A DNA stretch of 64,000 bases from Bacteroidaceae bacterium (GTDB taxonomy: Bacteria > Bacteroidota > Bacteroidia > Bacteroidales > Bacteroidaceae): assembly GCA_017447625.1 (NCBI GenBank), contig JAFSNB010000001.1:62001-126000 (forward strand), written 5' to 3'. This document shows positions 1,394 to 63,827 of the stretch, in pieces. The stretch's first letter is position 1, and the number at the start of each line of letters is the position of its first letter. Under the pieces are notes generated by a model, which saw only the letters and a program-made list of their open reading frames with translations, was not told the DNA's origin and made no database searches. Both the position numbers and the translations under genes were made by a program.

Positions 1394-4300
1394 TTACTTC
1401 ACCATTACTTTCTTGCCATTCTGGATGTACAGACCCTTCTGAGCCTTGCTTACGCGGCGTCCGCTGAGGTCAAACATAGCACCAGCCTCATGGTCAATGG
1501 TCAATGGTGAATGTTCAATGGACTCAACTCCCGTCTCGCCACCCCAGTTGATGGCAAAGCCCTTAACCAGAGAACCACTAACGGTAGCATTAGTCAGATA
1601 AGCGCGGAAGCCCGACAGCACGTTCTGATCCCAATGGTAGAAGCCAACGACATAAGGATCGGAGTCAGTCTCACGATAACGTCCGAGGTAATAGTCAGAA
1701 CCCTTAGTTGACGATATATCAATAGCGGCATAGGTGCCTGTGAGGGCATTACCAATAGCAGGACCGAATGAATCGTCGGTATTGATGGTAGCTGTTGCTG
1801 TCGCAGATGTACCCTTCAAGAGCACCGGTGTGCCGGCGGGAACTTGATTGCTTGTTACGACTGTTGGCACTGCCCAAGAACCGCTGATAGACAATGTGTA
1901 TGCGTTTGCACCTTCGATTGTAACATCGCAGGGTAGGCAAAGTGTAGCATAGTAGTTCCCATCACCTGCAGCGTTGAGGGTAATTGGGAGAGAGGTGACA
2001 TTTTCAAGAACGAAATCGTAGTCACCACCAGTTTGTTCGCTCTCGCCTGCATCAGTTGCATATTCATTTATCTTAAGGCTTCTTGTATTATCTTTGAATC
2101 CGATATTATAGCGAGAACGTGCTGAAGCTGCAGAGAAATTGATGGATGTTGGTGTGGAGTTAACCTCACCCATTGTTGCAAAGTATGTTTTCTCATAGTC
2201 AGCATACCGTTCACTTATTGCATAGCCATTTGCAAAGTTAATCAGATGATTATCCTTGAAAAGGTATATTGTACCCTTTTCATTATCACCCGTTTTGGTT
2301 TCAACTTTGTTAATGTTACCATACTGGTTGTTAGTGTTTGAAAGGTAGTTATCCTGACTAAATGAACTTATGCGTAAGAAAGTGTTGTCTGCAGGCATAT
2401 TCAGTACCCATCCTGCCCTGATACCTCTCAGTGTAATGAAAGAACTGATGAAATCACGTGCATTAGATTCCATTTTAGCTGTTCCATAGTCAGCCAAGGC
2501 TGTATTTACATCATCCTGCGTGTAACTAGAGTTGGTATATTTTCCTAACGTTGTTCCAATTAATGTGTTTACATCACTATACAACTCATAATCATAAAGC
2601 GAGACTAAAGGATCCTCAATGTCAACACGGGAACCTTCTGCTGTCGCTCCTCCGGAATTGTTCCATGTAGACAAAATGTTACCTCTGTTATTTAAATAAC
2701 AATTATTTGTCTCAAATAATCTAAAGCTCAGATTTGCCCCGCTGGTTGCAACTATGAATTTTGCGGCATTTGCTTCGGCTACAAATGTGCCTTGAGAATT
2801 ATCAGCGTTGCTAACAGATAGGTATTTTGCTTGACCAACATTGTAGATTGTGTACCCATCATAATAGTTGCCACCAAATGCCCATTGATCGTTTTCACTC
2901 ATAGTTGTCTCACTAGACAAAGTTTTCCCATTATCACCACCGGCATACAATCCATGCAATTTGAAGAAATATCTGTGATTGGCTTCTGTGGCGGGGGTGC
3001 TGGACGGAATGAAACCAGAGTTAATAGTTACATCTTGTGAAGAGGAACCTACGGCATAAGTAATAGTAGCAGGTGTGACAGTAAATACGCTTGGGAGGTT
3101 CAATGCTGTCTTCACATTAACATCTGCGTTAGCATAGATAGTCTTTGTTCGTATTGTCAAACCTGCTTCCTTGATGTTCAAAGCGATCTTAGAATCTGCG
3201 AACGTGCACTTGCTTGTATAATAAATGGCCTGCCATGCATCATGAATACAGGCACCTGATCCAGTCAAATTCGGATACGTATAGAAATCAGTTGTAATCC
3301 CTCGATCATTCATCTGGTGATTTATAAAGAGACCATATTGTGTTAGACGGAATTTACCGTTACTTTGTTTGGTCCCCATATAAATGTAATATGTAGTTCC
3401 TCCATCCAAATACGAATCGGAGTCAAATGCAAATGTATATATTTTACCATAATCTGCACTAGGAACCTTATTGATTGAAATGGCTGTAAACCCACTGGGG
3501 TCAAACTCCGTAGTTTCTGTAACGTCAGAAGTCAGACGATTCTCTTTACTGAAAAGCAAGTAAGTATTAACTGGAACTTTTGCATCTCTCAAACTCAACG
3601 AGAATTGATCAAAATGAACGTATTGACCTGACGTACCTGGAGCGGTATATTTCATACCAGCAATAGTAATCTCTCCCCCTGAAGTCTTATCTGCATAGTT
3701 AAGTCCAGACCAAATGTAATAATTATCCTGAGTATCTTGTGGATAAGCATAATTAGTCGTATAATTACAAGAATATTGACATTGGTAATTACCTCCGCGT
3801 GCCTCTGTCGTAGTATAGGTGTTACCAGAACAGAACTTAAGTCCTGATGCTGCTCCAGTATCTTTAACCGCTATACCTCTCTTTTGCAGATTGTATGTGC
3901 CATCTAAATTCTTTGATACAAAACAAACATACACAGTGGTATTGCCGTTTAGTCTGACTGTTTCATTAAAGTTAAATGCTTTTATATTTGCAGTAGCACT
4001 GCTGTGTCCAGAAATAGAATTTGAAGAAATAGCCAGGAATTCACTGGCTTTATGATTATTTTGTTCTGAAAATTTTTCCTGAGTAAAGGCCAAGTATGTC
4101 TCAAGTTCAGTGTCTGCACGACCATCAGATGCAAAACCTAATGTAAAATTATCAAGAAAGATGTCATTTACATTGGGAGTTGTCAGATACAGATACCAAG
4201 TAGTGGAATAGTAGTTGCCTGAGCCACCGACTCCAGTGACACCCGAAGACCAACTAGAGCTATTAATATATGTAACAGTAAACTTCGTAACCTTGGCATA

Positions 4301-4765
4301 TGTGTTTTCGCCCGTTAATGTAAAATGTGCAGCTTGTGTAGTCAATCCTGTGACGGTCGCTGTTGCAGAAGCAGTTCCTGTAGCTGTAAAGGAACCTCTA
4401 CCATTAGGAGTAATTGTCTGGTTGTGAGATCCATCTGTATTTACATTTTCAAATACTATTTCATAACCCGTTATCAAATACCCATCGTTTATACTGATGC
4501 TATAATTCCCTGTTTTAGAAGCGCTGGAACCTATATAACCTGTACTATTCTGCAAAAGATATGTATTAGCAGAAACGGTAATTTGCGGAGTTGTGCTTGT
4601 GGTTGTCCAGGAACTCTTCCAAGTGGATCCCCCGTTATCACTACTATACGAGCCATTGGGCCATTGGCCACCCGCTGCATCGTTGATAATTGTGACGGTT
4701 TCATCAGCCCACGCCCCACTGACTCCTGTCAGCAAGGCAATAAATAAAAGTAGTAGTTTTCTCAT
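1394..4765 (-). CDS. Large secreted protein with type IX-like C-terminal tail
   Basis: The start is placed at the ATG at 4765 because MRKLLLLFIALLTGVSGAWA is a clear signal peptide; an upstream in-frame ATG at 4861 would bury it. The mature protein, about 1,100 residues, is rich in Ser, Thr, Asn and Tyr and looks all-beta. The stretch near residues 35-200 (GSYSSDNGGSTWKSSW onward) resembles a carbohydrate- or ligand-binding jelly roll. A later segment (GLYAGGDNGKTLSSETTMS) has a ricin-like look. No catalytic motif is recognised. The end (FDLSGRRVSKAQKGLYIQNG, then KKVMVK) is a type IX secretion or sorting signal, so the protein should be exported and perhaps anchored. Residues about 1082-1093 are encoded by a heptamer repeat. 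A 3' fragment of a related gene is at 60406-60470. It is probably a surface adhesin or glycan-binding protein; that is an inference. Confidence 0.8.
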   Translation of the reverse strand: MRKLLLLFIALLTGVSGAWADETVTIINDAAGGQWPNGSYSSDNGGSTWKSSWTTTSTTPQITVSANTYLLQNSTGYIGSSASKTGNYSISINDGYLITGYEIVFENVNTDGSHNQTITPNGRGSFTATGTASATATVTGLTTQAAHFTLTGENTYAKVTKFTVTYINSSSWSSGVTGVGGSGNYYSTTWYLYLTTPNVNDIFLDNFTLGFASDGRADTELETYLAFTQEKFSEQNNHKASEFLAISSNSISGHSSATANIKAFNFNETVRLNGNTTVYVCFVSKNLDGTYNLQKRGIAVKDTGAASGLKFCSGNTYTTTEARGGNYQCQYSCNYTTNYAYPQDTQDNYYIWSGLNYADKTSGGEITIAGMKYTAPGTSGQYVHFDQFSLSLRDAKVPVNTYLLFSKENRLTSDVTETTEFDPSGFTAISINKVPSADYGKIYTFAFDSDSYLDGGTTYYIYMGTKQSNGKFRLTQYGLFINHQMNDRGITTDFYTYPNLTGSGACIHDAWQAIYYTSKCTFADSKIALNIKEAGLTIRTKTIYANADVNVKTALNLPSVFTVTPATITYAVGSSSQDVTINSGFIPSSTPATEANHRYFFKLHGLYAGGDNGKTLSSETTMSENDQWAFGGNYYDGYTIYNVGQAKYLSVSNADNSQGTFVAEANAAKFIVATSGANLSFRLFETNNCYLNNRGNILSTWNNSGGATAEGSRVDIEDPLVSLYDYELYSDVNTLIGTTLGKYTNSSYTQDDVNTALADYGTAKMESNARDFISSFITLRGIRAGWVLNMPADNTFLRISSFSQDNYLSNTNNQYGNINKVETKTGDNEKGTIYLFKDNHLINFANGYAISERYADYEKTYFATMGEVNSTPTSINFSAASARSRYNIGFKDNTRSLKINEYATDAGESEQTGGDYDFVLENVTSLPITLNAAGDGNYYATLCLPCDVTIEGANAYTLSISGSWAVPTVVTSNQVPAGTPVLLKGTSATATATINTDDSFGPAIGNALTGTYAAIDISSTKGSDYYLGRYRETDSDPYVVGFYHWDQNVLSGFRAYLTNATVSGSLVKGFAINWGGETGVESIEHSPLTIDHEAGAMFDLSGRRVSKAQKGLYIQNGKKVMVK

Positions 4766-4871
4766 TTTGTTGTTGAAGTTAGTTATTGTTATATAATGAT
4801 TTGCGGTTTCATTATGGCTAACAACCCGGCTAACTTCATTGGGCTTGTCTTGACACTTCAAGACATGAAAA

Positions 4872-5092
4872 AAGCGCAGGCCTTCACCATACGCTACTCA
4901 GGCTCACCACAAGCCCTCAACACATTATGGTTTTCCTACGCTGATGCGTAAGCACCAATATGTGTTGAGTGCAGGACTAACTGGGAACAATTATCCTGCC
5001 ATTGCTCTTTTTATGCTGGTTCGAGGTGGTGATTCGAGTAGCGATTGAGCAAATATGTTATTGTACGTCCACACGGGACGCACCCGTTTTTT
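4872..5092 (+). ncRNA. Structured RNA candidate, 6S-like layout
   Basis: The stretch folds on paper into a nested structure. GCTACTC (4893-4899) pairs with GAGTAGC (5036-5042), and CACCAC (4905-4910) with GTGGTG (5026-5031). Inside is a long hairpin CTCAACACAT/ATGTGTTGAG (4916-4925 with 4960-4969), capped by TACGC-TGAT-GCGTA (4937-4950). On the 3' side is a small hairpin GCAGGA/TCCTGC (4971-4976 with 4994-4999). A rho-independent terminator follows at 5073-5092, which fixes the strand. A closing stem, a bubble with a small 3'-side hairpin and a long apical arm is the layout of 6S RNA. The assignment to 6S is inference; the helices are seen directly. No clear TAnnTTTG box is visible upstream, and no coding frame runs through it. 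Confidence 0.5.
5073..5092 (+). terminator. Rho-independent terminator of the structured RNA
   Basis: ACGGG-ACGCA-CCCGT forms a 5-bp stem and is followed directly by a T tract on the plus strand. Confidence 0.75.
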
Positions 5093-5095
5093 ATA

Positions 5096-5197: not shown

Positions 5198-5205
5198 TGC
5201 GGGGG

Positions 5206-7227: not shown

Positions 7228-7277
7228 AGAGCCAATATCATGATAATTCTGTGCAAAGCGCATGTATTTGTTCTGTG

Positions 7278-9535: not shown

Positions 9536-9759
9536 GAGTTGAGAGTTGAGAGTTGAGAGACAGTTTAAGAAGTTTAAGAGTTTCAGCGGCCCTACGTAAT
9601 AACGTAATAACGGTATAACGTAATAACGTAATAACGTAATAACGACAAAGATAAGGCCGCCCAATGGTTAATGGCCAATGGTCAATGGTCAATGGCCAAT
9701 GGTCAATGGCCAATGGTCAATGGCCAATGGTCAATGGTCAATGGTCAATGGTCAATGGC
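9536..9759. repeat. Dense block of three repeat families downstream of hppA
   Basis: Three arrays lie side by side: GTTGAGA heptamers (9536-9560), GTAATAAC octamers (9594-9645) and at least a dozen CAATGGT/CAATGGC heptamers (9661-9758). The last array runs directly into the hppA stop codon. The region 9400-9535 is A-rich with no gene; a CCCCAAGAGGGGGG palindrome sits at about 9510-9525. Confidence 0.9.
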
Positions 9760-13230: not shown

Positions 13231-16200
13231 ATGAGTAATAAAGATATATATTCCTGGCCCCTAAAGAACTACCGCATATCGCTGCTTATCGTGACGATAC
13301 TCTTCGGCATCGGGATATACGGGATGTACGTGATGCCAAAGGACGAGTTCCCTCCATTCACCATACGGCAGGGAGTGGTCGTGGCAGTCTATCCCGGAGC
13401 TACCAGCGAGGAGGTGGAGCAGCAGGTGACACGCCCACTGGAGCGTTTCCTCTTCACCTACGGAGAGGTGAAGCGCCAGAAATGCACTTCCACATCACAG
13501 AACGGGATGGCTATAATCCTTGTCCACCTGAACGATAACGTGAACAATAAGGACGAGGTGTGGAGCAAGATCAAACACGGCCTCGCACTATACAAGCAGA
13601 GCCTGCCCAAAGGCGTCGCAGCACTCATAGCAAACGATGACTTCGGGAACACGTCGGCCCTGCTCATTGCCATCGAAAGCCCCGAACGCAACTACCGCGA
13701 GCTGCAGGGCTACAGCGACCGCCTGAGCGACCGCCTGCGTAAAATCCCGTCGGTGGCCAACGTGCGGCAGTACGGCGAACACCGCGAACAGATCAGCCTC
13801 TACATAGACCGCCGACGCATGGAAGCCTTCGGCATTGGGCAGAGCGCTCTCTTGGCCACCTTGCAGGCCGAGGGGCTAACCACCCTCTCAGGCTCGCTCC
13901 AGAGCGACCACCAGCAGACCCTCATCCACGTCGAACCGACCAGCAACAGCGAGGAGGAAGTGGCCAACACCATAATCTACAACGACCCGGCCACAGGCAA
14001 GACCGTCCGCATACGCGACATAGCCACCGTACGCCGCGAATACGACCTCAGCGACAGCCAGATAGAGCAGAACGGCCACCCCTGTCTCCTACTCTCCCTG
14101 GAGATGAATCAGGGAAATAACATCATGGCCTACGGCAGGGAGGTGGAGAGCGTGCTTGACAGTTTTGCAGCCGAGGAACTACCCGACGACGTCACCCTCA
14201 CCCGCATAGCTGACCAGCCGAAGGTCGTGGGCACGAGCATACGCGACTTTCTGCGCGACCTGCTGCTCTCGATGGCGGTGATTATCCTCGTCATGATGAT
14301 TCTGTTCCCGCTGCGGTCGGCCATAGTAGCTGCCATCACAATCCCCCTGAGTACGTTTATCAGCGTGGCCTTCATGTATTTCGCGGGCATCCCGCTGAAC
14401 ATCGTCACGCTGGCCGCCCTGATTGTCGTTCTCGGAATGATTGTAGATAACAGCATTGTGGTCATTGACGGCTACCTGGAGTATGTCGGCAAGGGCGAAC
14501 AGCCCAAGGAGGCCGCTATCCACAGCGTGCGCCAGTACTTCTTCCCGATGATGCTGGCCACAGTCTGCATCTGTGCCATCTTCTTCCCCTTCCTCATCAC
14601 ATTCCGAGGAGCCTTCCTCGATGCTGTGGGCGACTTCCCATGGACAGTAACAATTAACCTGATGGTGTCGCTGGCAGTTGCTGTGGCCGTTATCCCCTTC
14701 CTCTGCGTGAAAATTATTGGGATTCCCAAAAAGAAAGGGTCCGCCTCCATAACCGACTACGTCCAGAAATTCTACGATCGCATTCTCGGCTGGACGTTCC
14801 GCCGCCCCTACTGGACAATAGGACTGGGAGCTGCCTCTATAGTGCTCTCGCTCCTTATCGTTCCGCGACTGAAGGTGCGGCTCTTCCCCTTCTGCGACCG
14901 CGACCAGTTTGCCATTGAGATATTCCTGCCCGACGGCAAGGGGCTGGCAGACACCCGCACAGTGGCCGATTCTGTCTTTCAGGCCATACACAACGATGAG
15001 CGCATCACCAGCATCACCGCGTTCTTAGGTTGCTCTTCACCCCGTTTCCACACAGTGTATGCGCCGCAGATGGCGGGACGCAATTTTGCCCAATTCATCG
15101 TGAATACCACCTCGCAGAAGGCTACCCTGGACCTCCTCGACTGCTATCAGCCACTCCTCTCCGAAGCCTTCCCCGACGCATACGTGAAATTCAAGAGACT
15201 GGACCTCCTCGAGGTGCCGGAACTGGAGTTCCGCTTCTATGGTGATGACATCGACTCTCTCCACGTTGCAGCCGAGAGACTAATGGATCAGATGCGCGAG
15301 ATGCCTGAGCTGGAGTGGGTTCATAATGACTTCCTGCAGCCCTTCCCCATAATCGATGTGACGCTCGATCCCGTTGCCTCCTCGCAGCTTGGCATCAGCC
15401 GCACGTCGGCTTCGCTCGCCATAGCCGCTTCCACAGGCAATCTGCCGGTGGGCAGCATCTGGGAGGGCGATTATGAGATGCCCATCGTAGCACGCGACAC
15501 AACTACTATTAATATAAGCGACGTGGAGAACATCGGACTCCCGTCTGTGCAGGCCACCATCTCCTCCGCCCTCAGCCAACTGCCAATGGTCAATTCACTC
15601 CCCCCCACGGGGAGAGTCGGTGGGGGGCCGTCCACCACCGTCCCCTTGCGTCAAGTGGCAAAAGTAGCTCCCCGATGGAGTGAGAGCCGCATAATGCACC
15701 GCGCTGGCGAGCGCTGCCTCACCGTTACAGCTGAGTTCGCACGTGGCACTTATTCTACCCCCGTAGAACACCGCCTCGCTGATATGACCAAAGCCTTGCC
15801 CCTGCCCGAGGGGGTACGTGCCGAAGTGGGTGGAGAACTGGAATACAACGCAGAGAGCATGCCGATGATTTACAACGGTATCCTCATCGCGATGGTTATC
15901 ATTTTCTTCTTCATCCTGTTCAACTTCAAGCGATTCGGAATCACCTTCCTCTGCATGGCAGCCCTGGGTCTGATGATTCCCGGCGCCCTCGTCGGCCTCG
16001 GTCTGATGGACCGCACCCTCGGTCTCACCAGCATCTTCGGCCTCATCACCCTAATGGGCATAATCATGCGCAACGAGATTCTCATCTTTGAGCATGCAGA
16101 CGGCATCATCAAGCACTTCCACGAAGAGCATCCGATTCCCGGCACACATATTTCCGAAGAAGAAAAGGACGCATACCGATACCGCTTCAACCAGGCCATT

Positions 16201-16410
16201 GAAGAGGCAGCCTATGATGCCGGCCACCGCCGCATGGTCCCCATCTTCCTTACCACAGCCACCACAGCCGTAGGTGTCATACCGATGATCATAGCCGGCT
16301 CATCCTTCTGGATGCCTGTCGGAGTCACCATCCTCGCCGGCGGCATCGGCACCCTCATACTCGTGGTCACCGTCCTACCTGTTCTCTACTGGAAACTCAG
16401 CACGAAATAA
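13231..16410 (+). CDS. RND multidrug efflux inner-membrane pump
   Basis: This 1059-residue protein has the AcrB/HAE-type layout: TM1 (YRISLLIVTILFGIGIYGMY), a large porter loop, TM2-6 with LGMIVDNSIVVIDGYLEY near residue 408, a second periplasmic loop and TM8-12 ending VTVLPVLYWKLS. It uses the proton gradient to expel drugs or lipophilic compounds through the adjacent adaptor and TolC proteins. It is close to full length for the family. Residues about 784-800 (LPMVNSLPPTGRVGGGP) are encoded by a heptamer repeat joined to a GC-rich palindromic repeat, inserted in frame just before VPLRQVAKVAP in the porter domain. Substrate range unknown. Confidence 0.95.
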   Translation: MSNKDIYSWPLKNYRISLLIVTILFGIGIYGMYVMPKDEFPPFTIRQGVVVAVYPGATSEEVEQQVTRPLERFLFTYGEVKRQKCTSTSQNGMAIILVHLNDNVNNKDEVWSKIKHGLALYKQSLPKGVAALIANDDFGNTSALLIAIESPERNYRELQGYSDRLSDRLRKIPSVANVRQYGEHREQISLYIDRRRMEAFGIGQSALLATLQAEGLTTLSGSLQSDHQQTLIHVEPTSNSEEEVANTIIYNDPATGKTVRIRDIATVRREYDLSDSQIEQNGHPCLLLSLEMNQGNNIMAYGREVESVLDSFAAEELPDDVTLTRIADQPKVVGTSIRDFLRDLLLSMAVIILVMMILFPLRSAIVAAITIPLSTFISVAFMYFAGIPLNIVTLAALIVVLGMIVDNSIVVIDGYLEYVGKGEQPKEAAIHSVRQYFFPMMLATVCICAIFFPFLITFRGAFLDAVGDFPWTVTINLMVSLAVAVAVIPFLCVKIIGIPKKKGSASITDYVQKFYDRILGWTFRRPYWTIGLGAASIVLSLLIVPRLKVRLFPFCDRDQFAIEIFLPDGKGLADTRTVADSVFQAIHNDERITSITAFLGCSSPRFHTVYAPQMAGRNFAQFIVNTTSQKATLDLLDCYQPLLSEAFPDAYVKFKRLDLLEVPELEFRFYGDDIDSLHVAAERLMDQMREMPELEWVHNDFLQPFPIIDVTLDPVASSQLGISRTSASLAIAASTGNLPVGSIWEGDYEMPIVARDTTTINISDVENIGLPSVQATISSALSQLPMVNSLPPTGRVGGGPSTTVPLRQVAKVAPRWSESRIMHRAGERCLTVTAEFARGTYSTPVEHRLADMTKALPLPEGVRAEVGGELEYNAESMPMIYNGILIAMVIIFFFILFNFKRFGITFLCMAALGLMIPGALVGLGLMDRTLGLTSIFGLITLMGIIMRNEILIFEHADGIIKHFHEEHPIPGTHISEEEKDAYRYRFNQAIEEAAYDAGHRRMVPIFLTTATTAVGVIPMIIAGSSFWMPVGVTILAGGIGTLILVVTVLPVLYWKLSTK

Positions 16411-20877: not shown

Positions 20878-21939
20878 TCAGTTTTTGCGATGTTTAGGAG
20901 ACAAATCCGCCGGACGGAAACCTTCGGGTACGTAGTTGTAGATGCTCTGACAGCAGGCAGATGCGAACTGTTCCGCATAGAAGATGAGGGGGCGGAGCTG
21001 ATCCGGGGTGAGGCCTGCATGGATCTGTTCGCGGGTTATGCCCTCGCGGATGAGGCCGTAGGCAAAGCCGGCGTTGAAGTTGTCACCAGCACCGATGGTG
21101 CTGACAACGGGGGCAGGGTCACCCGACGGAGAACCGTCGGGCACAGTGGCCTCAAAGAGGGTGGTGGTGAGGGGCAAAGCCGTTATTACCTGAACGGGCT
21201 TGGGGCCGCGGGTGTAGATGAAGGTGGCGGCGTGGCCTCCGGAGAGAAGGGGTGTAGAGAGATGTTTGCGGAACACCTCTTCGATGCCCTCGATGCCAAA
21301 GAGAATGCGGAAGTCTTCGTCGCTGCCACGAAGGATGTCGGCCAGGCGGAAATTCTCTTCGAAAGTGGGAAGAAGGGCCTCTTTTTCGGCTGCGTGGGAG
21401 GAGCGGAAATTCACATCGTAATAGAGTATGGCCCCCTGGTCTTTTGCATAACGGAGGAAGTCTGCCACAGCCGGTCTTATTGCGGGATTCAGGGCGAAGA
21501 AAGAGCTGAACAGGATGATGTCATCTGGGTGAATCTCGGGACGGAGGCGCGAGAGGCGCGATGCGGAATGGTCCTTGTAGAATACGTATTCGGCATCGTT
21601 GCGCTCGTTTAGGAATGCCAGCGACAGGGGCGACTTGATGTCGTTGCGCACATTAACCAGACTGCTGTCCACGCCGTTATGGGCAAGGAAATCCATGGTA
21701 AGACGGCCCACACGGTCGTTGGCAGTCTCGCTAATAAACTGTGTCTTCACGCCTGCTCTGGCCAGCGATATGATGGAATTGAAGCAGCTGCCGCCCGGCA
21801 CCGCATCCACAGGTTTATTTCCCTGGAATATGATGTCGAGAACGGTCTCGCCGATACCAATGACAGACCTTGGCCCCTCTCCGGCCCCTCCCGTGAGGGA
21901 GGGGAGTGGCTGGCGCGATGTGTTATCTTTATAACTCAT
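20878..21939 (-). CDS. PfkB-family sugar kinase with repeat-derived N-terminus
   Basis: The ribokinase/PfkB fold is clear: GIGETVLDIIFQGNKPVDAV, PGGSCFNSIISLARAG (the GG sugar-binding motif), DVNFRSSHAAE in the middle and the catalytic signature TIGAGDNFNAGFAYGL with its Asp. It should phosphorylate a sugar such as fructose or ribose; the substrate is not decidable. Relatives normally start right at the first strand (xxxGIGET). Here about 25 residues precede it, and residues about 9-24 (RQPLPSLTGGAGEGPR) come from a GC-rich palindromic repeat (21870-21912). The start codon may therefore have been acquired with the insertion. It has its own AT-rich leader. Confidence 0.92.
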   Translation of the reverse strand: MSYKDNTSRQPLPSLTGGAGEGPRSVIGIGETVLDIIFQGNKPVDAVPGGSCFNSIISLARAGVKTQFISETANDRVGRLTMDFLAHNGVDSSLVNVRNDIKSPLSLAFLNERNDAEYVFYKDHSASRLSRLRPEIHPDDIILFSSFFALNPAIRPAVADFLRYAKDQGAILYYDVNFRSSHAAEKEALLPTFEENFRLADILRGSDEDFRILFGIEGIEEVFRKHLSTPLLSGGHAATFIYTRGPKPVQVITALPLTTTLFEATVPDGSPSGDPAPVVSTIGAGDNFNAGFAYGLIREGITREQIHAGLTPDQLRPLIFYAEQFASACCQSIYNYVPEGFRPADLSPKHRKN

Positions 21940-47216: not shown

Positions 47217-48266
47217 ATGATGCAAAAGACAAAAATATTGGTCACTGGCGCGAGCGGTTTCATCGGCTCGTTTATCGTCAGCGAGGGCATAGCCCGCGGC
47301 TTCGAGATGTGGGCGGGGATGCGCAAGAGCAGTTCAAAGCAGTATCTCACCGACCCCGCCATACGTTTTGCAGAGTTGGATCTCGGCAATCCGGCCCGCT
47401 TGCGTGAGCAGTTGGCGGCATACAAGGAGCAGATGGGAGGCTGGGATTATATCGTCCACGCAGCCGGAGCAACCAAAGCCCTGCGCCGCGAGCAGTTCTT
47501 CCAGACGAACACCGACGGCACGCGACATCTCGTAGAGGCTTTGCGTGCTCTGGAGATGATGCCGCGCCGCTTCGTCTTCATCAGTTCGTTGAGCATCTTC
47601 GGAGCAATTCGCGAACAGCCCGTGCGCAAGCCCACGGAATCCAACCCCTGGGTCTATTCGCCCATCCTGCTGTCGGACACTCCGCATCCGAACACAGCCT
47701 ATGGCGAGAGCAAACTGGCTGCCGAGCAGTTCCTCACAGAGCAGACGGATGTGCCCTGGGTGATATTGCGCCCCACTGGGGTCTATGGCCCCCGTGAACG
47801 CGACTATTTCCTGATGGCCCAGAGCATAAAGCAGCATATCGACTTTGCTGTAGGGCACCGTCCGCAGGAAATTACCTTCGTCTATGTGATGGATGTCGTT
47901 GAGGCCGTCTTCCTGGCTCTCGTAAAGCCTGTGGAGCACAAGGCCTTCTTCCTCTCCGACGGGCAGATATATGACAGCCGTCGCTTCTCCGACCTCCTGC
48001 AGGAGGAGATGGGCGTTAGCCGCGTCCTGCACATCAAGGCCCCGCTGTGGTTTCTGCAGGTGGTCTGCGCGGTGAGCGGCAAGATAAACGGGTGGATGAA
48101 GAAACTGGCCACCCTGAACATGGACAAGTATCACATCCTCAGCCAGCGCAACTGGCAGTGTGACATAGAACCCACGCGCAAGCTTCTGGGCTACGAGCCT
48201 CAGTGGCCGCTGGAACGGGGCGTTAAAGAAAGTGTAAGATGGTACAAAGAAAACGGTTGGCTCTGA
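47217..48266 (+). CDS. NAD-dependent epimerase/dehydratase family protein
   Basis: An extended short-chain dehydrogenase: GASGFIGSFIVSEGIARGF nucleotide loop near the start, AGATKA, SSLSIFG and YGESKLAAEQ catalytic Tyr-Lys near residue 163, and RPTGVYGPRERDYF. The substrate is not recognisable; family members act on nucleotide sugars or lipid-linked groups. It overlaps the PAP2 gene by 28 bp, so the pair are co-translated. 349 residues. An ATG three bases downstream could also serve as start. Confidence 0.9.
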   Translation: MMQKTKILVTGASGFIGSFIVSEGIARGFEMWAGMRKSSSKQYLTDPAIRFAELDLGNPARLREQLAAYKEQMGGWDYIVHAAGATKALRREQFFQTNTDGTRHLVEALRALEMMPRRFVFISSLSIFGAIREQPVRKPTESNPWVYSPILLSDTPHPNTAYGESKLAAEQFLTEQTDVPWVILRPTGVYGPRERDYFLMAQSIKQHIDFAVGHRPQEITFVYVMDVVEAVFLALVKPVEHKAFFLSDGQIYDSRRFSDLLQEEMGVSRVLHIKAPLWFLQVVCAVSGKINGWMKKLATLNMDKYHILSQRNWQCDIEPTRKLLGYEPQWPLERGVKESVRWYKENGWL

Positions 48267-49264
48267 TAAACAAGGTAGAGTGGATAGCCATAGCCTGGTG
48301 TCTGCTTACCCTCGTGTTTATGGCTCTGCTATGGTCACGCCTTGTAGAGCCGGAGGCCATGCTGCTGATGCGCGGCAAATGGCTTCTCATGACCGTTCTG
48401 CTCATTGGGCTTGGCCGCCTCTGGCCGTGCCGGCTGACCCTCTACGCCCGCATCACGGCCCAGCTTATCTGGCTGTCACAGTGGTATCCGGACACTTACG
48501 AGTTCAACCGCATCTTCCCGAACCTCGACCACGTGTTTGCAGGCCTCGAACAGACTATCTTCGGCTGTCAGCCGTCGATTCATTTCAGCCAGCTATGTAC
48601 CGGAATCGTGTGGAGCGAGCTGTTCAACATGGGATATTGGAGTTATTTCCCAATGATAATAGTCCTTGTGCTCACCATCTTCATCAAAGAGCTACTTGGC
48701 CAAGAGTCTAAGGGCTCAATGGTCAATGGGCACGTACTGTTGAGCGAAGGCGAAAAATGGTCAATGGTCAATGAGGGTCCCTCCCTCACCGTTCCCTCAT
48801 TGATACTCATCTCGTTCTTCATCTATTATCTCATATTCATATTCGTGCCGGTGGCCGGGCCACAGTTCTATTTTCAGGCCATAGGCTTGGATGCGGCGGC
48901 ATCGGGGCAGTTCCCGTCCATCGGGACATATTTCTCCTCGCATACGGAGATGCTGCCCTCGCCGGGAGACCCCGACGGCCTCTTCTGCCGACTCGTGGCT
49001 TCGGCCCATGAGGCAGGCGAGCGCCCCACAGCAGCCTTCCCCTCGTCGCATGTCGGCATTAGTACCATAGTCATGATTCTGGCACGCCTCCACGTGCCGC
49101 GCCTCACCTGGTTCCTGCTGCCGTTCTATGTGCTGCTTTGCTGTGCCACAGTCTATATCCAGGCTCACTACCTCATTGACGCCATCGCCGGCCTCATTAC
49201 CGCCCCGCTGGTTCTCGCCTTAGCCGGATGGATTAACTCTAAATTCATAATTCATAATGCTTAA
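48239..49264 (+). CDS. PAP2-family membrane phosphatase/transferase with repeat-encoded insert
   Basis: Polytopic membrane protein (about six helices). The PAP2 signature is near the end: GERPTAAFPSSHVGIS and YLIDAIAG with the catalytic His residues. It is related to enzymes that move phosphoryl-inositol or phosphate between lipids; Bacteroidales use this family in sphingolipid or phospholipid head-group transfer, but the substrate here is unproven. Residues about 160-182 (GSMVNGH ... WSMVNEG) are encoded by CAATGGT-type heptamers in what should be a cytosolic loop. The last residues (NSKFIIHNA) come from an AATTCAT heptamer array that also supplies the stop codon. 341 residues. Confidence 0.82.
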   Translation: MVQRKRLALINKVEWIAIAWCLLTLVFMALLWSRLVEPEAMLLMRGKWLLMTVLLIGLGRLWPCRLTLYARITAQLIWLSQWYPDTYEFNRIFPNLDHVFAGLEQTIFGCQPSIHFSQLCTGIVWSELFNMGYWSYFPMIIVLVLTIFIKELLGQESKGSMVNGHVLLSEGEKWSMVNEGPSLTVPSLILISFFIYYLIFIFVPVAGPQFYFQAIGLDAAASGQFPSIGTYFSSHTEMLPSPGDPDGLFCRLVASAHEAGERPTAAFPSSHVGISTIVMILARLHVPRLTWFLLPFYVLLCCATVYIQAHYLIDAIAGLITAPLVLALAGWINSKFIIHNA

Positions 49265-58557: not shown

Positions 58558-58564
58558 CGGACAG

Positions 58565-58702
58565 ATCATAGGACGCAGATACAATCCACGGACAAGAAAC
58601 AAGACAAAAGCAAGACAAAAACAAGACAAAAAAAAGACAAAAAAAATGGTACAAGAAACAGCACAAGAAACGGGACAAGAAACGGGACAAGAAACGGGAC
58701 AA
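58565..58702 (+). repeat. Left inverted repeat and ACAAG array of the RAYT-like element
   Basis: ATCATAG, 6 bp, then GATACAATCCACG and GACAAG begin an array of AAGACAAAAAC and ACAAGAAACGGG units. The same ATCATAG...GATACAATCCACG order recurs inverted at 59910-59937. A short frame (58646-58705) through the array encodes MVQETAQETGQETG and could be a leader peptide. Confidence 0.8.
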
Positions 58703-58763
58703 TAGCTGTACAGTCTCGTCACTTGACTGCAAATTTCATTTGCAAATAACATAAACATACCCA

Positions 58764-59786
58764 ATGACAAACGAGAAAGAACACACACCCAGGAACGAGA
58801 CCTTCACGTGGTTGGAGCCAGGAGCATGGCGCAAGCCATGCATCGTACATGTAACTATGGTGGCCAATTCTCGGCAGGCGTTGTTTGGCAAACTCACCCA
58901 TGATGGCTCTGAGGCTGTAATAGAAAAGACCCCGATTGGTTGGGCTCTCATCAATCAGCAGCGAAGGTTGCTGGAGTTGTGTCCTGAGATGAAAATTCTT
59001 GCTGACAAAGTGATGCCAGACCATCATCACATGGTGCTTCAGGTGCAGCGGACAATGCCCCGCAGCATCAGGGAGGTGGTACGCGGCTATATGCAAGGAT
59101 GCAAGGCGGAAGTCCGTAAACTGGGGTTTATTGACAACCTGTATGACGCGCCGCCATTCTATCGTGTGCTGACGCACAAAGGGCAACTGCACGCGATGAT
59201 AGAATATGTTAAGGCCAACGCAGAACGTGCCTGGCAGCGCAGGCAGAACCCCGACCTTTTCAAGATGCATCGCAGGACGGAAGTGTGTGATTTACAGTTC
59301 ACGTCTATGGGTAACCACTTCTTGTTAGATTGGCCTGAAAGACAGTTGGTGGAAATGAGCCGTGAAGCCAGCGTTGGGCAAATAGAGGAGCGGCTGCAAC
59401 AGGTGTTGGCGGCAGCGCATAATGGCGCAGTGACCTATACGGCAGCGATTAGCAACGGTGAGCAGCAAATAGCCAGAACGGTTCGCGAGCAGGGATTCCC
59501 GTTAGTGGTGCTGCTTAACGACGGTTTCCCGGCAGAAGGTTCACCTCATGAACGATTCTATAAGCCGGGTGGGGTCTATTTCGAGGCTTGTTCTAAAGGG
59601 AAGTTGCTGCTGATGGAGCCAGACAGCAGCGCGTTTGTTAATCCGGTTGTGATAAAGGCAACAGAGGAAGCTTTGCGCCAGAAGGCTGAGGCCAAGCACT
59701 ATAGTTACCGCCCTATTCCTGTAGAATCTCAACGCTACCGCTTCGTGGCCTTGAACGAGATTGGACGGCTGCTGGTTAATCGGTGA
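58764..59786 (+). CDS. RAYT-like HUH (Y1) transposase with C-terminal DprA/LOG-like domain
   Basis: The N-terminal half has the Y1/REP-associated tyrosine transposase layout: VHVTMVANSRQALFGKL, then VMPDHHHMVLQV (the histidine pair of the HUH motif, with His in the middle position) and IREVVRGYMQGCKAEVRKLG with the likely nucleophile Tyr. The C-terminal 110 residues (TYTAAISNGEQQIARTVREQ, FPLVVLLNDGFP, GVYFEACSKGKLLLMEP) resemble a DprA/LOG-type Rossmann domain. 340 residues. It lies between inverted ACAAG arrays (58565-58702 and 59790-59937). Such proteins mobilise or maintain short palindromic repeats; which repeat this one acts on is not shown. Confidence 0.82.
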   Translation: MTNEKEHTPRNETFTWLEPGAWRKPCIVHVTMVANSRQALFGKLTHDGSEAVIEKTPIGWALINQQRRLLELCPEMKILADKVMPDHHHMVLQVQRTMPRSIREVVRGYMQGCKAEVRKLGFIDNLYDAPPFYRVLTHKGQLHAMIEYVKANAERAWQRRQNPDLFKMHRRTEVCDLQFTSMGNHFLLDWPERQLVEMSREASVGQIEERLQQVLAAAHNGAVTYTAAISNGEQQIARTVREQGFPLVVLLNDGFPAEGSPHERFYKPGGVYFEACSKGKLLLMEPDSSAFVNPVVIKATEEALRQKAEAKHYSYRPIPVESQRYRFVALNEIGRLLVNR

Positions 59787-59789
59787 CGT

Positions 59790-59937
59790 TCCGTTCCTTC
59801 TTTTCCGTCCCGCTCCTTGTCTGCCCCTTCGGTTTCGCCACGTTCCTTGTCCCGTCCCCTTCTGTTTCGCCACATTCCTTGTCCTTTCCCCTTGTCCCGT
59901 CCCCTTGTTCGTGGATTGTATCCGCCGAAACTATGAT
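59790..59937 (-). repeat. Right inverted repeat and ACAAG array of the RAYT-like element
   Basis: Read on the minus strand it begins ATCATAG, 8 bp, GATACAATCCACG (exact match to the left end) and runs through ACAAGGGGACGGG, ACAAGGGGAAAGG and longer ACAAGGAAcGTGGCGAAAC units. The core ACAAG-purine-CGGG is shared with the left array in opposite orientation. Confidence 0.8.
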
Positions 59938-59964
59938 TCGGTACCCCCCCACCATCAATCGGGG

Positions 59965-60128
59965 TTTTACAAGGAAGGCCGGACCTAACGGCCCAGCCCT
60001 CCATATATGGTTATTATTCAAGGTCCTCTCCCGGAAGTCACCCCCACGGGGGGGCCTCCTCCCCACGCAGGTCCTCCCCCCCACGGGGGGAGTTAGAGAG
60101 GGGCCTTGAGAGGGGCCTTGAGAGGGGC
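59965..60128 (+). repeat. GC-rich palindromic repeat block, copy 3
   Basis: GGCCGGACCTAACGGCCCAGCCCTCCATATATGG is followed by CCCCCACGGGGGGG, CCTCCTCCCCACGCAGGTCC, a CCCCCCACGGGGGGAG palindrome and three GAGAGGGGCCTT units, matching 903-1114. Confidence 0.8.
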
Positions 60129-60290
60129 CTACCAGTCGTCACCCATATCGAAGTCATCCTCTTTTGCCCAGCCGCCATCGCTGCCGGAGGCTGTGTTTTC
60201 ATAGATTCCTAATGAACCCTCAAGGATGCGACCTTCGGTCTCAACCTTCTTCACCGTAATCTCGGGTTTGCTATATATCTTTTTCACCAT
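60129..60290 (-). CDS. 53-residue acidic-tail small protein, copy 2
   Basis: Near-identical to the gene at 1115-1276 over its full length; the differences fall mostly between residues about 33 and 48 (ENTASG for NSTTATG, Phe for Tyr). The duplicated block reaches from about 60069 to 60460 and corresponds to 1057-1448, so the 3' end of a type IX-tailed gene came along (60406-60470). The reading frame survives in both copies. Function unknown, as for the first copy. Confidence 0.65.
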   Translation of the reverse strand: MVKKIYSKPEITVKKVETEGRILEGSLGIYENTASGSDGGWAKEDDFDMGDDW

Positions 60291-60405
60291 GATGATTTAC
60301 TATTTAAAGATTTACAATTTACGATTTATTTACTATTTGGCAATTTATCTATCACCCCGCCCTCCCCTCCCAAACAGGGGAGGGGTTGGGGGAGAGGCTT
60401 CTTTT

Positions 60406-60470
60406 TTACTTCACCATTACTTTCTTGCCATTCTGGATGTACAGACCCTTCTGAGCCTTGTTGATGCGGC
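60406..60470 (-). pseudogene. 3' fragment of a type IX-tailed protein gene
   Basis: The last 20 codons (GRINKAQKGLYIQNGKKVMV) match the end of the large gene at 1394-4765, but upstream the similarity stops at about 60460-60470 and no body follows. It is a leftover of the duplicated block. Confidence 0.75.
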
Positions 60471-60528
60471 CCAAACACTTTTCAATAAGATTTCGGGCAA
60501 AAAGTGCACGCATGTGCAGGAGTTTGCG

Positions 60529-60536
60529 TATATTTG
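60529..60536 (+). promoter_or_regulatory. -7 box of the M6 protease gene
   Basis: TATATTTG, 46 bp before the ATG at 60583. Confidence 0.55.
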
Positions 60537-60582
60537 CCGCCTCAAAACCGATATATATTAATATATGAGGGGTGCAAACGAA

Positions 60583-62127
60583 ATGAAGAAGGTGCTTTTG
60601 ATTGCGGTGGCCTTAGTGATGGCTACGATGAGTGCGCAGGCGCAGCGCAGGGGCTGCCTACACAGCGAAGCCGCTACGCGAGCCGAAAACACGAACCGTA
60701 TGCCAAAGCCATACGACTTCGACCCCGAGAGGACTTACCGCGTGCCGGTGGTGCTCGTCTCATTCAGCGACATGGACTTCACTATGGAAAGCCCGGCGGA
60801 GTACTACAACCGCCTCTTCAACGAACAGGGCTTCAACGAAGGAGCGGGCCGCGGCTGCGTTACCGACTATTTCCGTGAGCAGTCCGGCGAACGCCTCAAC
60901 CTCTCGTTCGACATCTATGGCCCTATAAAAGTGAGTACGAAAGCCGGTGGGCGCCGATTAACAGACATGTATGGTGATTCGGATATTATAGAAGCTTTCC
61001 AAAAGCTTAGTAAATCAGAGACCACAGACTTCGTCATTTACGACTGGAACGATGATAACAAAGCCAATGCGGTAATACTAATATTCGCGGGCTATACGGG
61101 TAACCAGAAGGACGGCTATATATGGCCCAACACCGGTTTTGGAATGTCTTCTATGCAACTGCCCGGAAGGATCAAGCCTTACCTCACGTCGTCAAGCTGC
61201 GAGCTGTGGGGTGACTCAACACTTTGCGGCATAGGCACCTTAGTACACGAATTCTGCCACTGTCTCGGTCTTCCCGACCTGTATCCGATGGCTCCTGCCA
61301 CGCCCTATTCTGAGTTCGACGAGTGGGATCTGATGGATGGAGGCAACTATGTCGGTAAAGGCTGGTGTCCGCCCAACCTAAGCGCTATGGAGCGGATGTA
61401 TCTGGGCTGGCAGACACCCATAGAGCTCACAGAGCCCTCAACCATCAGAAATCTGAAATCCATAGGAGCAGGCGGCGAGTCCTTCATCATCAGGAACTCG
61501 GCAAGAAAGAACGAATATTACATCCTTGAAAACCGCCAGCAGGTGGGCTGGGACTACGGCGTTCCGGGCAACGGTATGCTCATCACTCACATCGATTTCA
61601 GTCAGGATTTATGGTTAAGAAACGAAGTGAACACATCCGACTCGCACTTCCGCTGCGACCTGATTCACGCCGACGGCAAGAGCTATATCAATTGGGATAA
61701 GGACAACAACGGCAAAAACAAGGACCACTGGACAATGGGAAACAGAATGCGGAGCAAATACCTGAGCACATCGGCATACCCCTACACCGACTCCGTGAGG
61801 ATGGCAATCAACAACGCACTCACCGACGACTCCAACCCCACTGCCTCTCTCTACAACCCGGCTGCCGACGGCCGCAAGTTCTTGGGCAAACCCATCACCA
61901 ACATCAAACAAGCTGCCGACGGCACCGTCTCCTTCGACTTCATGGGAGGATGCGAGGGAGCAAACATCGGTGAAATTCATAATGCACAATGCATAATGCA
62001 TAATGGGGCTGGCGCTATTTACGACCTCAGCGGACGCAGAACCTCTGTGTTCTCTGTCTCCTCTGTGCCCTCTGTGCTCCCGAAGGGAGTTTACATCGTA
62101 AATGGCCAGAAACTTTTTGTAAAATAA
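60583..62127 (+). CDS. Secreted M6-family metalloprotease with type IX tail
   Basis: The ATG at 60583 starts a signal peptide (MKKVLLIAVALVMATMSAQA); an in-frame ATG at 60565 would put six extra residues ahead of it. The protease carries LVHEFCHCLGLPDLY near residue 224 (HExxH...G..D zinc site) and Met-turn-like WDLMDGGN. It belongs with immune inhibitor A-type M6 peptidases. Residues about 464-474 (EIHNAQCIMHN) are heptamer-encoded and residues about 490-500 (VFSVSSVPSVL) are encoded by CTCTGTGTT nonamers. The protein ends VLPKGVYIVNGQKLFVK, a type IX tail, so it should be exported or surface-bound. 514 residues. Confidence 0.9.
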   Translation: MKKVLLIAVALVMATMSAQAQRRGCLHSEAATRAENTNRMPKPYDFDPERTYRVPVVLVSFSDMDFTMESPAEYYNRLFNEQGFNEGAGRGCVTDYFREQSGERLNLSFDIYGPIKVSTKAGGRRLTDMYGDSDIIEAFQKLSKSETTDFVIYDWNDDNKANAVILIFAGYTGNQKDGYIWPNTGFGMSSMQLPGRIKPYLTSSSCELWGDSTLCGIGTLVHEFCHCLGLPDLYPMAPATPYSEFDEWDLMDGGNYVGKGWCPPNLSAMERMYLGWQTPIELTEPSTIRNLKSIGAGGESFIIRNSARKNEYYILENRQQVGWDYGVPGNGMLITHIDFSQDLWLRNEVNTSDSHFRCDLIHADGKSYINWDKDNNGKNKDHWTMGNRMRSKYLSTSAYPYTDSVRMAINNALTDDSNPTASLYNPAADGRKFLGKPITNIKQAADGTVSFDFMGGCEGANIGEIHNAQCIMHNGAGAIYDLSGRRTSVFSVSSVPSVLPKGVYIVNGQKLFVK

Positions 62128-62128
62128 A

Positions 62129-62165
62129 CGGCCCCCAGTGTTCTCCAGAGGGCCGCTCTTTCTTT
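62129..62165 (+). terminator. Terminator of the M6 protease gene
   Basis: CGGCCC (62129-62134) pairs with GGGCCG (62150-62155), followed by CTCTTTCTTT. Confidence 0.7.
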
Positions 62166-62270
62166 GGCGTTATACCGTAATTCCGTAATACCGTTATACC
62201 GTAGGGTCAAGAAATTGTCAATTGTCAACTATCAACTGTCAATTCCTCCCCCTCCGGGGGATTGAGGGGG
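62166..62270. repeat. Octamer, heptamer and palindromic repeats after cysS
   Basis: CGTTATAC/CGTAATTC octamers, then TTGTCAA/CTATCAA heptamers and a CCCCCTCCGGGGGATTGAGGG palindrome fill the gap between the M6 protease terminator and the cysS stop codon. Confidence 0.85.
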
Positions 62271-63827
62271 CTATTTATTCAATGTCCAGGTGGCGCCGTC
62301 CTTGGTATCCTTGATTTCGAAGCCGAGGGCTGTGAGTTCGTTGCGGATCTTGTCGCTTGTAGCCCAGTCCTTATTGGCTTTGGCCACGGCACGCTGTTCC
62401 AAGAGCATATCTATGGCTTTGCCGAAAGCCTCCTCACGGGCGGAGGAAGACTCATTGACCATTGAACATTGACCATTGAACATTGTCAGGCCGAGGATGT
62501 CGAAGGCGAAGGTAGAGAATGTCTCTTTCAAGGCGGCAAGCACATCGGCCGTGACGGTGGCCTTGTGGTCGAGGAGGGTGTTGATGACGCGGCAGGCATC
62601 GAAGAGCTCGCTGATCACGGTGGGTGATGCGAGGTCGTCGTTCATGGCGTCGTAGCACTTCTGACGCAGCGAATCGACATATTCCATTTTTATGCTGTCG
62701 GCACCGGCATTGGCCACTGGCGTGATGCGTCCAATGCCTTTCCAGCCTTCCATGAGTCGCTGCAGCCCCTTCTCTGCTGCCTGCAGAGCCTCGTTGGAGA
62801 AATCGACGGTGCTGCGGTAGTGCGCCTGAAGGATGAAGAAGCGTATGGTCATCGGTGAATAGGCCTGTTTTAGCGCTTCGTGGTCGCCGGTGAAGAACTG
62901 ACTGAGGGTGATGAAATTGCCGAGGCTCTTGCCCATTTTCTGCCCGTTGATCGTCACCATGTTGTTGTGCATCCAATAGTTCACGATATCGTGGCCCTGA
63001 GAGGCTACAGCCTGCGCTATCTCGCACTCGTGGTGAGGGAAGACGAGATCCATGCCTCCGCCGTGGATATCAAAGCGTTCGCCGAGATACTTGCGGCCCA
63101 TAGCAGTGCACTCGCAGTGCCAACCGGGGAAACCGTCGCTCCAAGGTGACGGCCAACGCATGATATGCTCGGGCTGAGCGGCTTTCCACAGGGCGAAATC
63201 CACCTGATTGCGCTTCTCTCCCACTCCGTCAAGCTCGCGCGAGGCATTGATGACATCGTCGAGATTGCGGCCGGAGAGACGTCCGTAGTGGTATTTCTCG
63301 TTGTATTTCTCTATATCGAAATAGACGCTGCCCTGACTCTCGTAGGCAAAGCCGTTATCGAGAATTTCCTTCACCAGCTGAATCTGCTCAATGATATGAC
63401 CGGAAGCGTGCGGCTCGATACTTGGAGGCAGGCAGTTGAGGGCGCGCATAGCATCGTGGAAGCGGTTGGTATAGTACTGTGCCACCTCCATCGGCTCTAA
63501 CTGCTCCAGACGGGCCTTCTTGGCTATCTTGTCCTCGCCCTCGTCGGCATCGTGCTCCAGATGGCCCACATCGGTGATGTTGCGCACGTAACGCACCTTG
63601 TATCCGATATGCTGCAGATAGCGGAAGAGCAGGTCGAAGGTGATTGCAGGACGCGCATGTCCCAGATGTGCATCGCCATAGACTGTAGGTCCGCACACAT
63701 ACATTCCGACCCGGCCCTCAACCAATGGCTTAAACAGCTCCTTCTGGCGCGAAAGGGTGTTATAGATTAAAAGCCCCTCTCTAACTCCCCCCGTGGGGGG
63801 GAGAATTGCATTTCCACTTGCTTCCAT
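62271..63827 (-). CDS. cysS: Cysteinyl-tRNA synthetase with two repeat-encoded inserts
   Basis: The class I core is complete: [18 protein letters not shown] (HIGH region with zinc Cys), a C...H...E zinc site ([17 protein letters not shown]) and KMSKS as QKMGKSLGN. The enzyme should be active. The N-terminus [20 protein letters not shown] is abnormal: the normal start region begins at [12 protein letters not shown], and the extra residues are encoded by a CCCCCCGTGGGGGGGAG palindromic repeat. A second insert ([10 protein letters not shown], residues about 447-457) comes from a heptamer array in the C-terminal anticodon-binding part. 518 residues. Confidence 0.96.

What the first reader, a model, noticed from the sequence alone, without database searches (positions are those of the whole stretch)
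1488..63827. Repeats sit in frame inside conserved genes and encode extra peptides
The repeat families that fill gaps also occur inside genes for a cysteinyl-tRNA synthetase, an RND pump, a sugar kinase, a PAP2 protein, an M6 protease and a large type IX-tailed protein, always without breaking the frame. The CAATGGT family yields peptides such as SMVN or LTID; the palindromic family yields [14 protein letters not shown] peptides. This is like the Rickettsia palindromic elements, which insert in-frame peptides into housekeeping proteins, and I know of no described counterpart in Bacteroidales.
Basis: partly seen in the sequence, partly recalled or inferred. Interest (0 to 1): 0.85.

Follow-up and report, generated by a model that had tools for sequence, protein, structure and literature searches.

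The report
Selfish repeats inside essential bacterial proteins
In a gut bacterium of the Prevotella group, short hairpin-forming DNA repeats sit in frame inside dozens of genes, including several for essential enzymes, so that the proteins probably carry repeat-encoded peptides in flexible loops, much like the palindromic elements known from Rickettsia.

Summary
The palindrome (CTCCCCCCCACGGGGGGAGTTAGAGAGGGGCC) has 66 places in this 2.56-Mb MAG, its reversed control 0. In the sequence I examined, 52 of 78 copies lie in open frames inside 41 predicted genes, among them RsmA, PheT, ValRS, CysRS, Pth, Rho, MetH and chorismate synthase. PheT has a clean ~30-aa insert absent from 15 of 15 congeners. 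Inverted pairs (~105 nt; two folded, -68 and -80 kcal/mol) resemble RPEs or REPINs. Single intragenic copies lie 38:2 on the sense strand, against 10:12 between co-directional genes, suggesting selection on what is encoded. Heptamer arrays are a separate family, also in frame; some hold a 24-nt core with 49 copies here and none in 300 family genomes.
Limits: many sites are variable linkers where repeats partly replace native codons; in one congener heptamers coincide with a split aroC, so frame keeping looks like survivorship; no mobilising enzyme was identified; translation is untested. New variant of a known kind.

The parts
62271..63827 (-). cysteinyl-tRNA synthetase gene carrying two repeat-derived segments
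   Evidence: Pfam PF01406 E 4.2e-107; alignment with 80 relatives
63774..63821 (-). 48-nt N-terminal insert (codons 3-18, [16 protein letters not shown]) holding the palindrome 63773-63803
   Evidence: 1 of 80 relatives (L031) has LPPTGG near the N-terminus; the ten [10 protein letters not shown] codons are 30/30 nt identical to L031 while the rest is 75%
62453..62485 (-). heptamer array encoding [10 protein letters not shown] in the DILGL..REEAFG loop
   Evidence: TRF; loop length; pLDDT below 50 at 451-464
13231..16410 (+). RND (AcrB-type) pump gene with heptamer and palindrome in a variable loop
   Evidence: Pfam PF00873; 29 fetched relatives
15598..15629 (+). palindrome encoding SLPPTGRVGGGP, preceded by CAATGGTCAATTC (PMVNS)
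20878..21939 (-). PfkB-type sugar kinase gene with N-terminal repeat segment
   Evidence: Pfam PF00294; segment absent in 29 of 29 fetched relatives
21872..21906 (-). variant palindrome CTCCCCTCCCTCACGGGAGGGGCCGGAGAGGGGCC encoding PLPSLTGGAGEGP
   Evidence: sequence; not scored by the consensus scan
48239..49264 (+). PAP2-superfamily protein gene with heptamer-core-heptamer element
   Evidence: Pfam PF14378
48732..48755 (+). 24-nt core ACGTACTGTTGAGCGAAGGCGAAA (peptide HVLLSEGE) between heptamers 48717-48731 and 48756-48773
   Evidence: 49 copies in own genome, 0 in 300 other family genomes; contexts
1394..4861 (-). type IX-tailed 1155-aa protein gene
   Evidence: C-terminal tail read from the sequence (label recalled); no Pfam match
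1490..1521 (-). antisense heptamer run encoding HSPLTIDHE just before the tail
60565..62127 (+). M6 peptidase gene with repeats before and inside its type IX tail
   Evidence: Pfam PF05547; tail label recalled
61974..62005 (+). AATTCAT/AATGCAT heptamer run encoding IHNAQCIMHN
1063..1091 (+). intergenic palindrome copy with tandem sub-units beside it
60074..60105 (+). intergenic palindrome copy with tandem sub-units beside it
9662..9758 (+). longest CAATGGT array in the window (13.9 units), intergenic
58764..59786 (+). possible Y1/RAYT-like transposase ORF (motif MPDHHHMVLQ), considered as mobiliser; not established
   Evidence: Pfam Y1_Tnp E 0.037, below its cut-off; distribution of homologues

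Best explanation
The palindrome is a non-autonomous, hairpin-forming mobile element, either a single 31-nt copy or two inverted copies around a spacer (about 105 nt), that inserts between and inside genes. Since most frames of either strand are free of stops, a coding insertion of suitable length changes the protein without truncating it. It survives where it falls in a flexible loop, linker or terminus and where the encoded peptide is tolerated: sense strand, mostly the LPPTGG(V/A/D)(R/G)EG frame. Heptamer arrays are a second family that grows by unit slippage; a tandem 7-mer reads the same heptapeptide in every frame and CAATGGT is stop-free on one strand, so only total length matters for the frame. 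Some arrays carry a 24-nt core (8 codons) at a fixed phase. Both families can land in the same tolerant loop. Shown: repetition, positions, open frames, absence from orthologues, strand and frame bias, shared sites in congeners. Inferred: mobility, translation, tolerance as the filter. Unknown: the enzyme that moves them.
For: 66 palindrome places and 390 heptamer 18-mer places in the MAG, reversed controls 0. 52 of 78 palindromes in genes; 8 of 16 in 464 kb taken as whole stretches. 33 of 38 scanned palindrome-bearing ORFs have Pfam matches at E 1e-5. PheT insert absent in 15 of 15 congeners. ValRS, PFL-like enzyme and Pth have 40, 32 and 27 net extra residues around the element against a solved homologue. 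Strand bias 38:2 in genes, 10:12 between co-directional genes (Fisher 1.8e-5), with near-equal open frames on both strands (109, 106); frames 29:7:2. Two inverted pairs fold at -80.2 and -68.1 kcal/mol, z -7.5 and -7.7. Same sites in other assemblies: CysRS and ValRS in G355, PFL-like and biotin/lipoyl protein in G292. Both CysRS repeat segments have pLDDT below 50. One CysRS loop holds heptamers here, a palindrome in L031 and heptamer-like text in L063 and L073.
Against: No mobiliser found: the Y1-like ORF is weak and its homologues do not track element number. No target-site duplication was shown. The closest congeners have about 80% protein identity, so empty sites come from other species. 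No expression data. The 40 single copies lie in 35 genes, so they are not all independent. At three shared sites, element codons change synonymously less than the rest (5 of 49 against 720 of 1909, p 3e-5), which plain neutral inheritance does not predict; a fourth (biotin/lipoyl protein, 97% identical overall) goes the other way, 3 of 30 against 10 of 222. A single palindrome and the PAP2 heptamer-core element fold little better than shuffles (z -1.7, -1.1). The CysRS model is modest (mean pLDDT 72.6) and other stretches are below 50 too.
Confidence: 0.72

Rival explanations
1. The elements in genes are kept because they do something: the hairpin in the mRNA slows translation or protects the message, or the peptide has a role.
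For: Strand and frame bias inside genes but not between them; fewer synonymous changes in elements at three shared sites; very stable hairpins for two inverted pairs.
Against: Hosts are unrelated enzymes, and the same genes lack the element in most relatives examined (15 of 15 for PheT; 79 of 80 for the CysRS N-terminus). Bias can come from peptide tolerance, low divergence from homogenisation among copies.
Confidence: 0.15
2. No mobility: local slippage and convergent drift in variable linkers produced repeat-like text.
For: Several sites are linkers that vary in relatives too; heptamer arrays look grown by unit repetition.
Against: The palindrome and the 24-nt core recur near-identically at dozens of unrelated places inside and outside genes, reversed controls 0; PheT shows a clean insertion in a conserved domain.
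Confidence: 0.08
3. Artefact of a metagenome-assembled genome or of gene calling.
For: The MAG is 73% complete in 46 contigs, repeats disturb assemblies, and genes were called by a simple codon-usage finder of mine.
Against: Frames stay open through conserved domains on both sides in many genes; four in-gene sites recur in the separate assemblies G292 and G355.
Confidence: 0.03

Closest known systems
Rickettsia palindromic elements (RPE) and Wolbachia counterparts
   Same: hairpin-forming repeats in frame in conserved protein genes and also between genes; 105-146 bp with terminal inverted repeats (PMC2229807, passages), close to the 102-116-nt inverted pairs here
   Different: other phylum, gut anaerobe, GC-rich sequence; most copies are single 31-nt units; sense-strand bias measured here; homology to RPE sequences not tested
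Intragenic REPs (GTAG/CGTC families) and REPIN-type inverted pairs
   Same: short palindromes, alone or as inverted dimers, some inside ORFs including helicase, tRNA synthetase and repair genes (PMC3733652, section 15)
   Different: no GTAG or CGTC in the consensus; most copies examined here are intragenic, whereas most REPs are intergenic (same section); no cognate RAYT shown
Enterobacterial RU/ERIC-type MITEs fused in frame
   Same: small mobile sequences with open frames found inside genes (PMC2759123, passages)
   Different: different sequences; target-site duplications not shown here
Heptamer tandem repeats (TAACTGA arrays)
   Same: 7-nt units, mostly intergenic, stop-free on one strand, occasional copies in or at the ends of ORFs (PMC4679880, sections 9, 12, 15)
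   Different: other units (CAATGGT, AATTATG, AATTCAT, GTTGAGA), and a 24-nt core at fixed phase found in none of 300 other family genomes

Membership tests
Rickettsia palindromic elements | insertion in frame in conserved protein genes | tested here: met
Rickettsia palindromic elements | about 105-146 bp forming a long stem-loop with terminal inverted repeats | tested here: inconclusive
   five inverted pairs span 102-116 nt and the two folded are very stable; the 40 single intragenic copies are only about 31 nt
Rickettsia palindromic elements | sequence homology to an RPE family | not tested
   no RPE sequence was fetched
Rickettsia palindromic elements | insert is translated in vivo | not testable with these tools
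   needs proteomics
REP / REPIN (RAYT-mobilised) | short palindrome also present as inverted dimers with a spacer | tested here: met
   five inverted pairs with 39-51-nt gaps; a sixth, in ValRS, encloses 105 nt that read as native sequence; the spacer of the biotin/lipoyl pair may be native too
REP / REPIN (RAYT-mobilised) | GTAG or CGTC tag next to the palindrome | tested here: not met
   neither tetramer is in the 32-nt consensus; flanks not tested systematically
REP / REPIN (RAYT-mobilised) | cognate RAYT whose presence tracks the repeats | tested here: inconclusive
   weak Y1-like ORF; G098 has a 79% homologue and 0 palindromes, G138 has 12 palindromes and at best a 36% homologue
REP / REPIN (RAYT-mobilised) | mostly extragenic | tested here: not met
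   52 of 78 intragenic; 8 of 16 in the 464 kb of whole stretches
MITE | target-site duplication | tested here: inconclusive
   none seen by eye in the flanks; no systematic test
TAACTGA heptamer repeats | 7-nt tandem units, mainly intergenic | tested here: met
   112 period-7 arrays in 464 kb: 66 intergenic, 29 at gene edges, 17 inside
TAACTGA heptamer repeats | unit TAACTGA | tested here: not met
   units seen in the window are CAATGGT, AATTATG, AATGCAT, GTTGAGA and others

The most novel reading that the evidence does not exclude
Two unrelated repeat systems, a hairpin palindrome and a heptamer array with a 24-nt core found in no other family genome searched, use protein loops as a niche. 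Their sequences are harmless when translated in more than one frame, palindromes inside genes favour the sense strand, and some insertions have stayed at the same place in different species while remaining nearly unchanged at synonymous sites. This would be a translated, partly domesticated class of bacterial selfish DNA that supplies linkers to housekeeping enzymes.
Probability: 0.3. Interest if true: 0.85.

Novelty: new variant of a known kind. Interest (0 to 1): 0.72.

Why it matters
Protein-coding palindromes are best known from Rickettsia and Wolbachia. A gut anaerobe with them in some 40 genes, with in-gene copies in congeners too, gives a natural set of insertion experiments outside intracellular bacteria: which loops of ValRS, PheT, CysRS or a glycyl-radical enzyme tolerate about 16-40 extra residues. 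It bears on how new protein segments arise, warns that such segments in Prevotella-group proteins need not be domain features, and the strand bias makes selection on the encoded peptide testable.

Tried and rejected
Mobiliser: the window ORF 58764-59786 has a histidine motif like that of HUH transposases (recalled), but Pfam Y1_Tnp scores E 0.037, the only PDB match is a designed protein at E 0.21, and homologues do not track palindrome number. Its flanks carry other repeats. The own genome has no PF01797 match at E 0.001.

Ribozyme: the core ACTGATGAGCGAAGTCGAA reminded me of a hammerhead core (recalled). Rfam gave no hammerhead in five loci that hold the core, E up to 5, and copies vary at residues I recall as essential; dropped.

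Phage or plasmid carriage: exact palindrome and core patterns gave 0 in viral contigs; one 105-nt pair gave no match in plasmids.

Shared end: GCGCAGC lies within 20 nt of 11 of 112 heptamer arrays (0.55 expected); CGCAG lies within 20 nt upstream of 16 of 78 palindromes, downstream of 0, its reverse complement downstream of 2. Suggestive, not proven.

Rows left out of counts: the kinase variant palindrome and the copy in L129 (C21:126204, in a 557-aa open frame) are not among the 78. All 52 intragenic copies entered the frame tally: 40 single (38 sense, 2 antisense, in 35 genes) and 12 in six inverted pairs, 6 sense and 6 antisense. Of 26 intergenic copies, 4 lie between convergent genes and were not used in the 10:12. 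The synonymous comparison pools CysRS, PFL-like and ValRS; I left out the biotin/lipoyl pair, which goes the other way, and the gene upstream of CysRS, where only one codon outside the element aligned. The contigs sampled were picked as long ones from the repeat hit list, not at random.
Full report
WHERE IT LIES. The window is C21:62001-126000 of a 2.56-Mb bacterial MAG in 46 contigs, 73% complete. The 80 CysRS relatives listed are mostly Prevotellaceae, Bacteroidaceae or Bacteroidales records, many titled from rumen or gut of herbivores; the nearest is RUG12444 (L031, 81%).

CHECK OF THE OBSERVATION. CAATGGT is over-represented (22 against 9.2 expected). In the whole genome the 18-mer AATGGTCAATGGTCAATG has 390 places with up to 2 mismatches and a 26-mer of the palindrome 66 with up to 3; the reversed controls give 0.

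ORTHOLOGUES IN THE WINDOW. CysRS: most relatives read ME(Q)xLLIYNTL or similar at the start; the window has [25 protein letters not shown]. Of 80 relatives only L031 shares LPPTGG there. No ATG, GTG or TTG lies between the element and the conserved N23, T24, L25, so the upstream start is probably used. The second CysRS site, the loop after DILGL, has heptamer-coded [10 protein letters not shown] here, the palindrome (LPPTGGGREG) in L031 and heptamer-like text in L063 and L073. The loop is 16 aa here, 9-10 in 61 of 81 sequences and 11 in L031, so repeats partly replace native codons. RND, kinase and PAP2 repeat peptides are in none of the 29, 29 and 12 relatives whose loci were fetched; those searches covered 61 genomes each, with loci capped at 30. 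In the RND pump the nearest congeners (78-79%) have a loop of similar length without repeats. I did not fetch orthologues of the M6 and type IX-tailed proteins.

BEYOND THE WINDOW. I took 400 kb as whole stretches of long contigs plus stretches around palindromes. Genes were called with a simple codon-usage finder of mine (coding fraction 0.84-0.92). Among 78 distinct palindromes scoring at least 38, 52 lie in genes (41 genes) and 26 between; in the 464 kb of whole stretches with the window, 8 and 8. Of the 38 fetched host ORFs scanned with Pfam, 33 match at E 1e-5: RsmA, LpxB, HemN-like, DEAD helicase, Pth, PheT, ValRS, QueA, Rho, MetH, an aminotransferase, shikimate dehydrogenase, TrmB-type, a Clp-type ATPase, asparagine synthase, a PFL-like glycyl-radical enzyme, chorismate synthase, a dihydrolipoyl dehydrogenase-type enzyme, a peptidyl-arginine deiminase-type enzyme, glycoside hydrolases and others (gene names are my reading of the Pfam labels).

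CLEAN INSERTIONS. PheT has about 30 extra residues in its tRNA-binding domain. LPPTGG is absent in 15 of 15 congeners; 13 have the whole gap and two (G017, G018) a part-length loop without repeats. In G028, G138, G155, G098 and G002 the flanking matches are 3 nt apart. Against a solved homologue the PFL-like enzyme has 32 net extra residues between aligned blocks, ValRS 40, Pth 27. In ValRS two copies in opposite orientation enclose sequence that reads as native. Chorismate synthase carries the palindrome in a loop that varies in 15 congeners; in one of them, G017, heptamer arrays sit at the same loop and the gene is in two frames, either a real interruption or an assembly fault.

STRAND AND FRAME. 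Of 40 single intragenic palindromes (35 genes) 38 are on the gene's strand; between co-directional genes it is 10 of 22 (Fisher 1.8e-5). Both strands offer nearly the same number of open frames (109 and 106), so stop codons do not explain it. Frames on the gene's strand are 29:7:2, mostly LPPTGG. I infer selection on the encoded peptide; RNA effects are not excluded.

SHARED SITES. CysRS and ValRS elements recur in G355 (RUG12444), the PFL-like and biotin/lipoyl ones in G292. In CysRS 30 of 30 nt are identical while the rest is 75%. Pooled over CysRS, PFL-like and ValRS, same-residue codons differ in 5 of 49 inside elements and 720 of 1909 outside (p 3e-5). The biotin/lipoyl gene, 97% identical between the two genomes, goes the other way (3 of 30 against 10 of 222). 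Explanations for the first: homogenisation between copies, repeated insertion, or nucleotide-level constraint.

STRUCTURE. Two inverted pairs fold as RNA at -80.2 and -68.1 kcal/mol (z -7.5, -7.7); a single copy (z -1.7) and the PAP2 heptamer-core element (z -1.1) are unremarkable. AlphaFold on 30 CysRS sequences (mean pLDDT 72.6) leaves residues 1-15 and 451-464, the two repeat segments, below 50, and five other stretches too.

HEPTAMERS AND CORE. 112 period-7 arrays in 464 kb: 66 intergenic, 29 at gene edges, where some supply the stop or start codon, and 17 inside, some of which look like ordinary coding repeats. A 24-nt core, ACG(T/A)A(C/T)TG(A/T)TGAGCGAAGNCGAA(A/T), sits between heptamers at a fixed phase in most copies: 49 copies in this genome with up to 1 mismatch and none in 300 others of the family. 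Of 25 distinct copies examined 5 are in genes, all reading H(V/E)LLS(E/A)GE, among them MnmE and CTP synthase.

DISTRIBUTION. Of 301 family genomes including this one, 14 have a palindrome match and 4 have 8 or more (G000 66, G292 19, G138 12, G015 8), all of one genus; G355 has 7. In G292, G015 and G002 the PheT insert peptide also matches inside other long open frames. None in viral contigs (exact pattern) or plasmids as searched.

LITERATURE. In-frame palindromes are known in Rickettsia and Wolbachia, and as intragenic REPs and MITEs (PMC2229807 and PMC2759123, passages; PMC3733652, passages and section 15). Heptamer arrays with occasional intragenic copies are known (PMC4679880). The kind is therefore known. 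The host group, the extent, the strand bias and the core did not appear in what my searches listed (titles and abstract starts).

Noticed in passing
1063-1458 and 60077-60470: A segment of about 395 nt holding palindromes and a type IX tail coding end is duplicated (93% and 84% identity in two parts); the second copy looks like a tail fragment with no gene attached.
   Followed up: no
58560-59940: The Y1-like ORF is flanked by its own repeats (ACAAGAAACGGG units upstream, 32-nt units downstream) and by inverted text around ATACAATCCACG, like a small transposable element.
   Followed up: partly
L365 (G017), about 2300-2410: Chorismate synthase of a congener is in two frames at the loop that holds the palindrome in this genome; inverted heptamer arrays (AAGTTGA, TCAACTT) lie at the break.
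   Followed up: partly
window 175-215 and 370-430, and other arrays: GCGCAGC precedes a minority of heptamer arrays and CGCAG a minority of palindromes, on one side only, suggesting a shared element end.
   Followed up: partly
62042-62080: An 18-nt repeat (CCTCTGTGCCCTCTGTGCT) lies in frame inside the type IX tail of the M6 protein, a further repeat class in genes.
   Followed up: no
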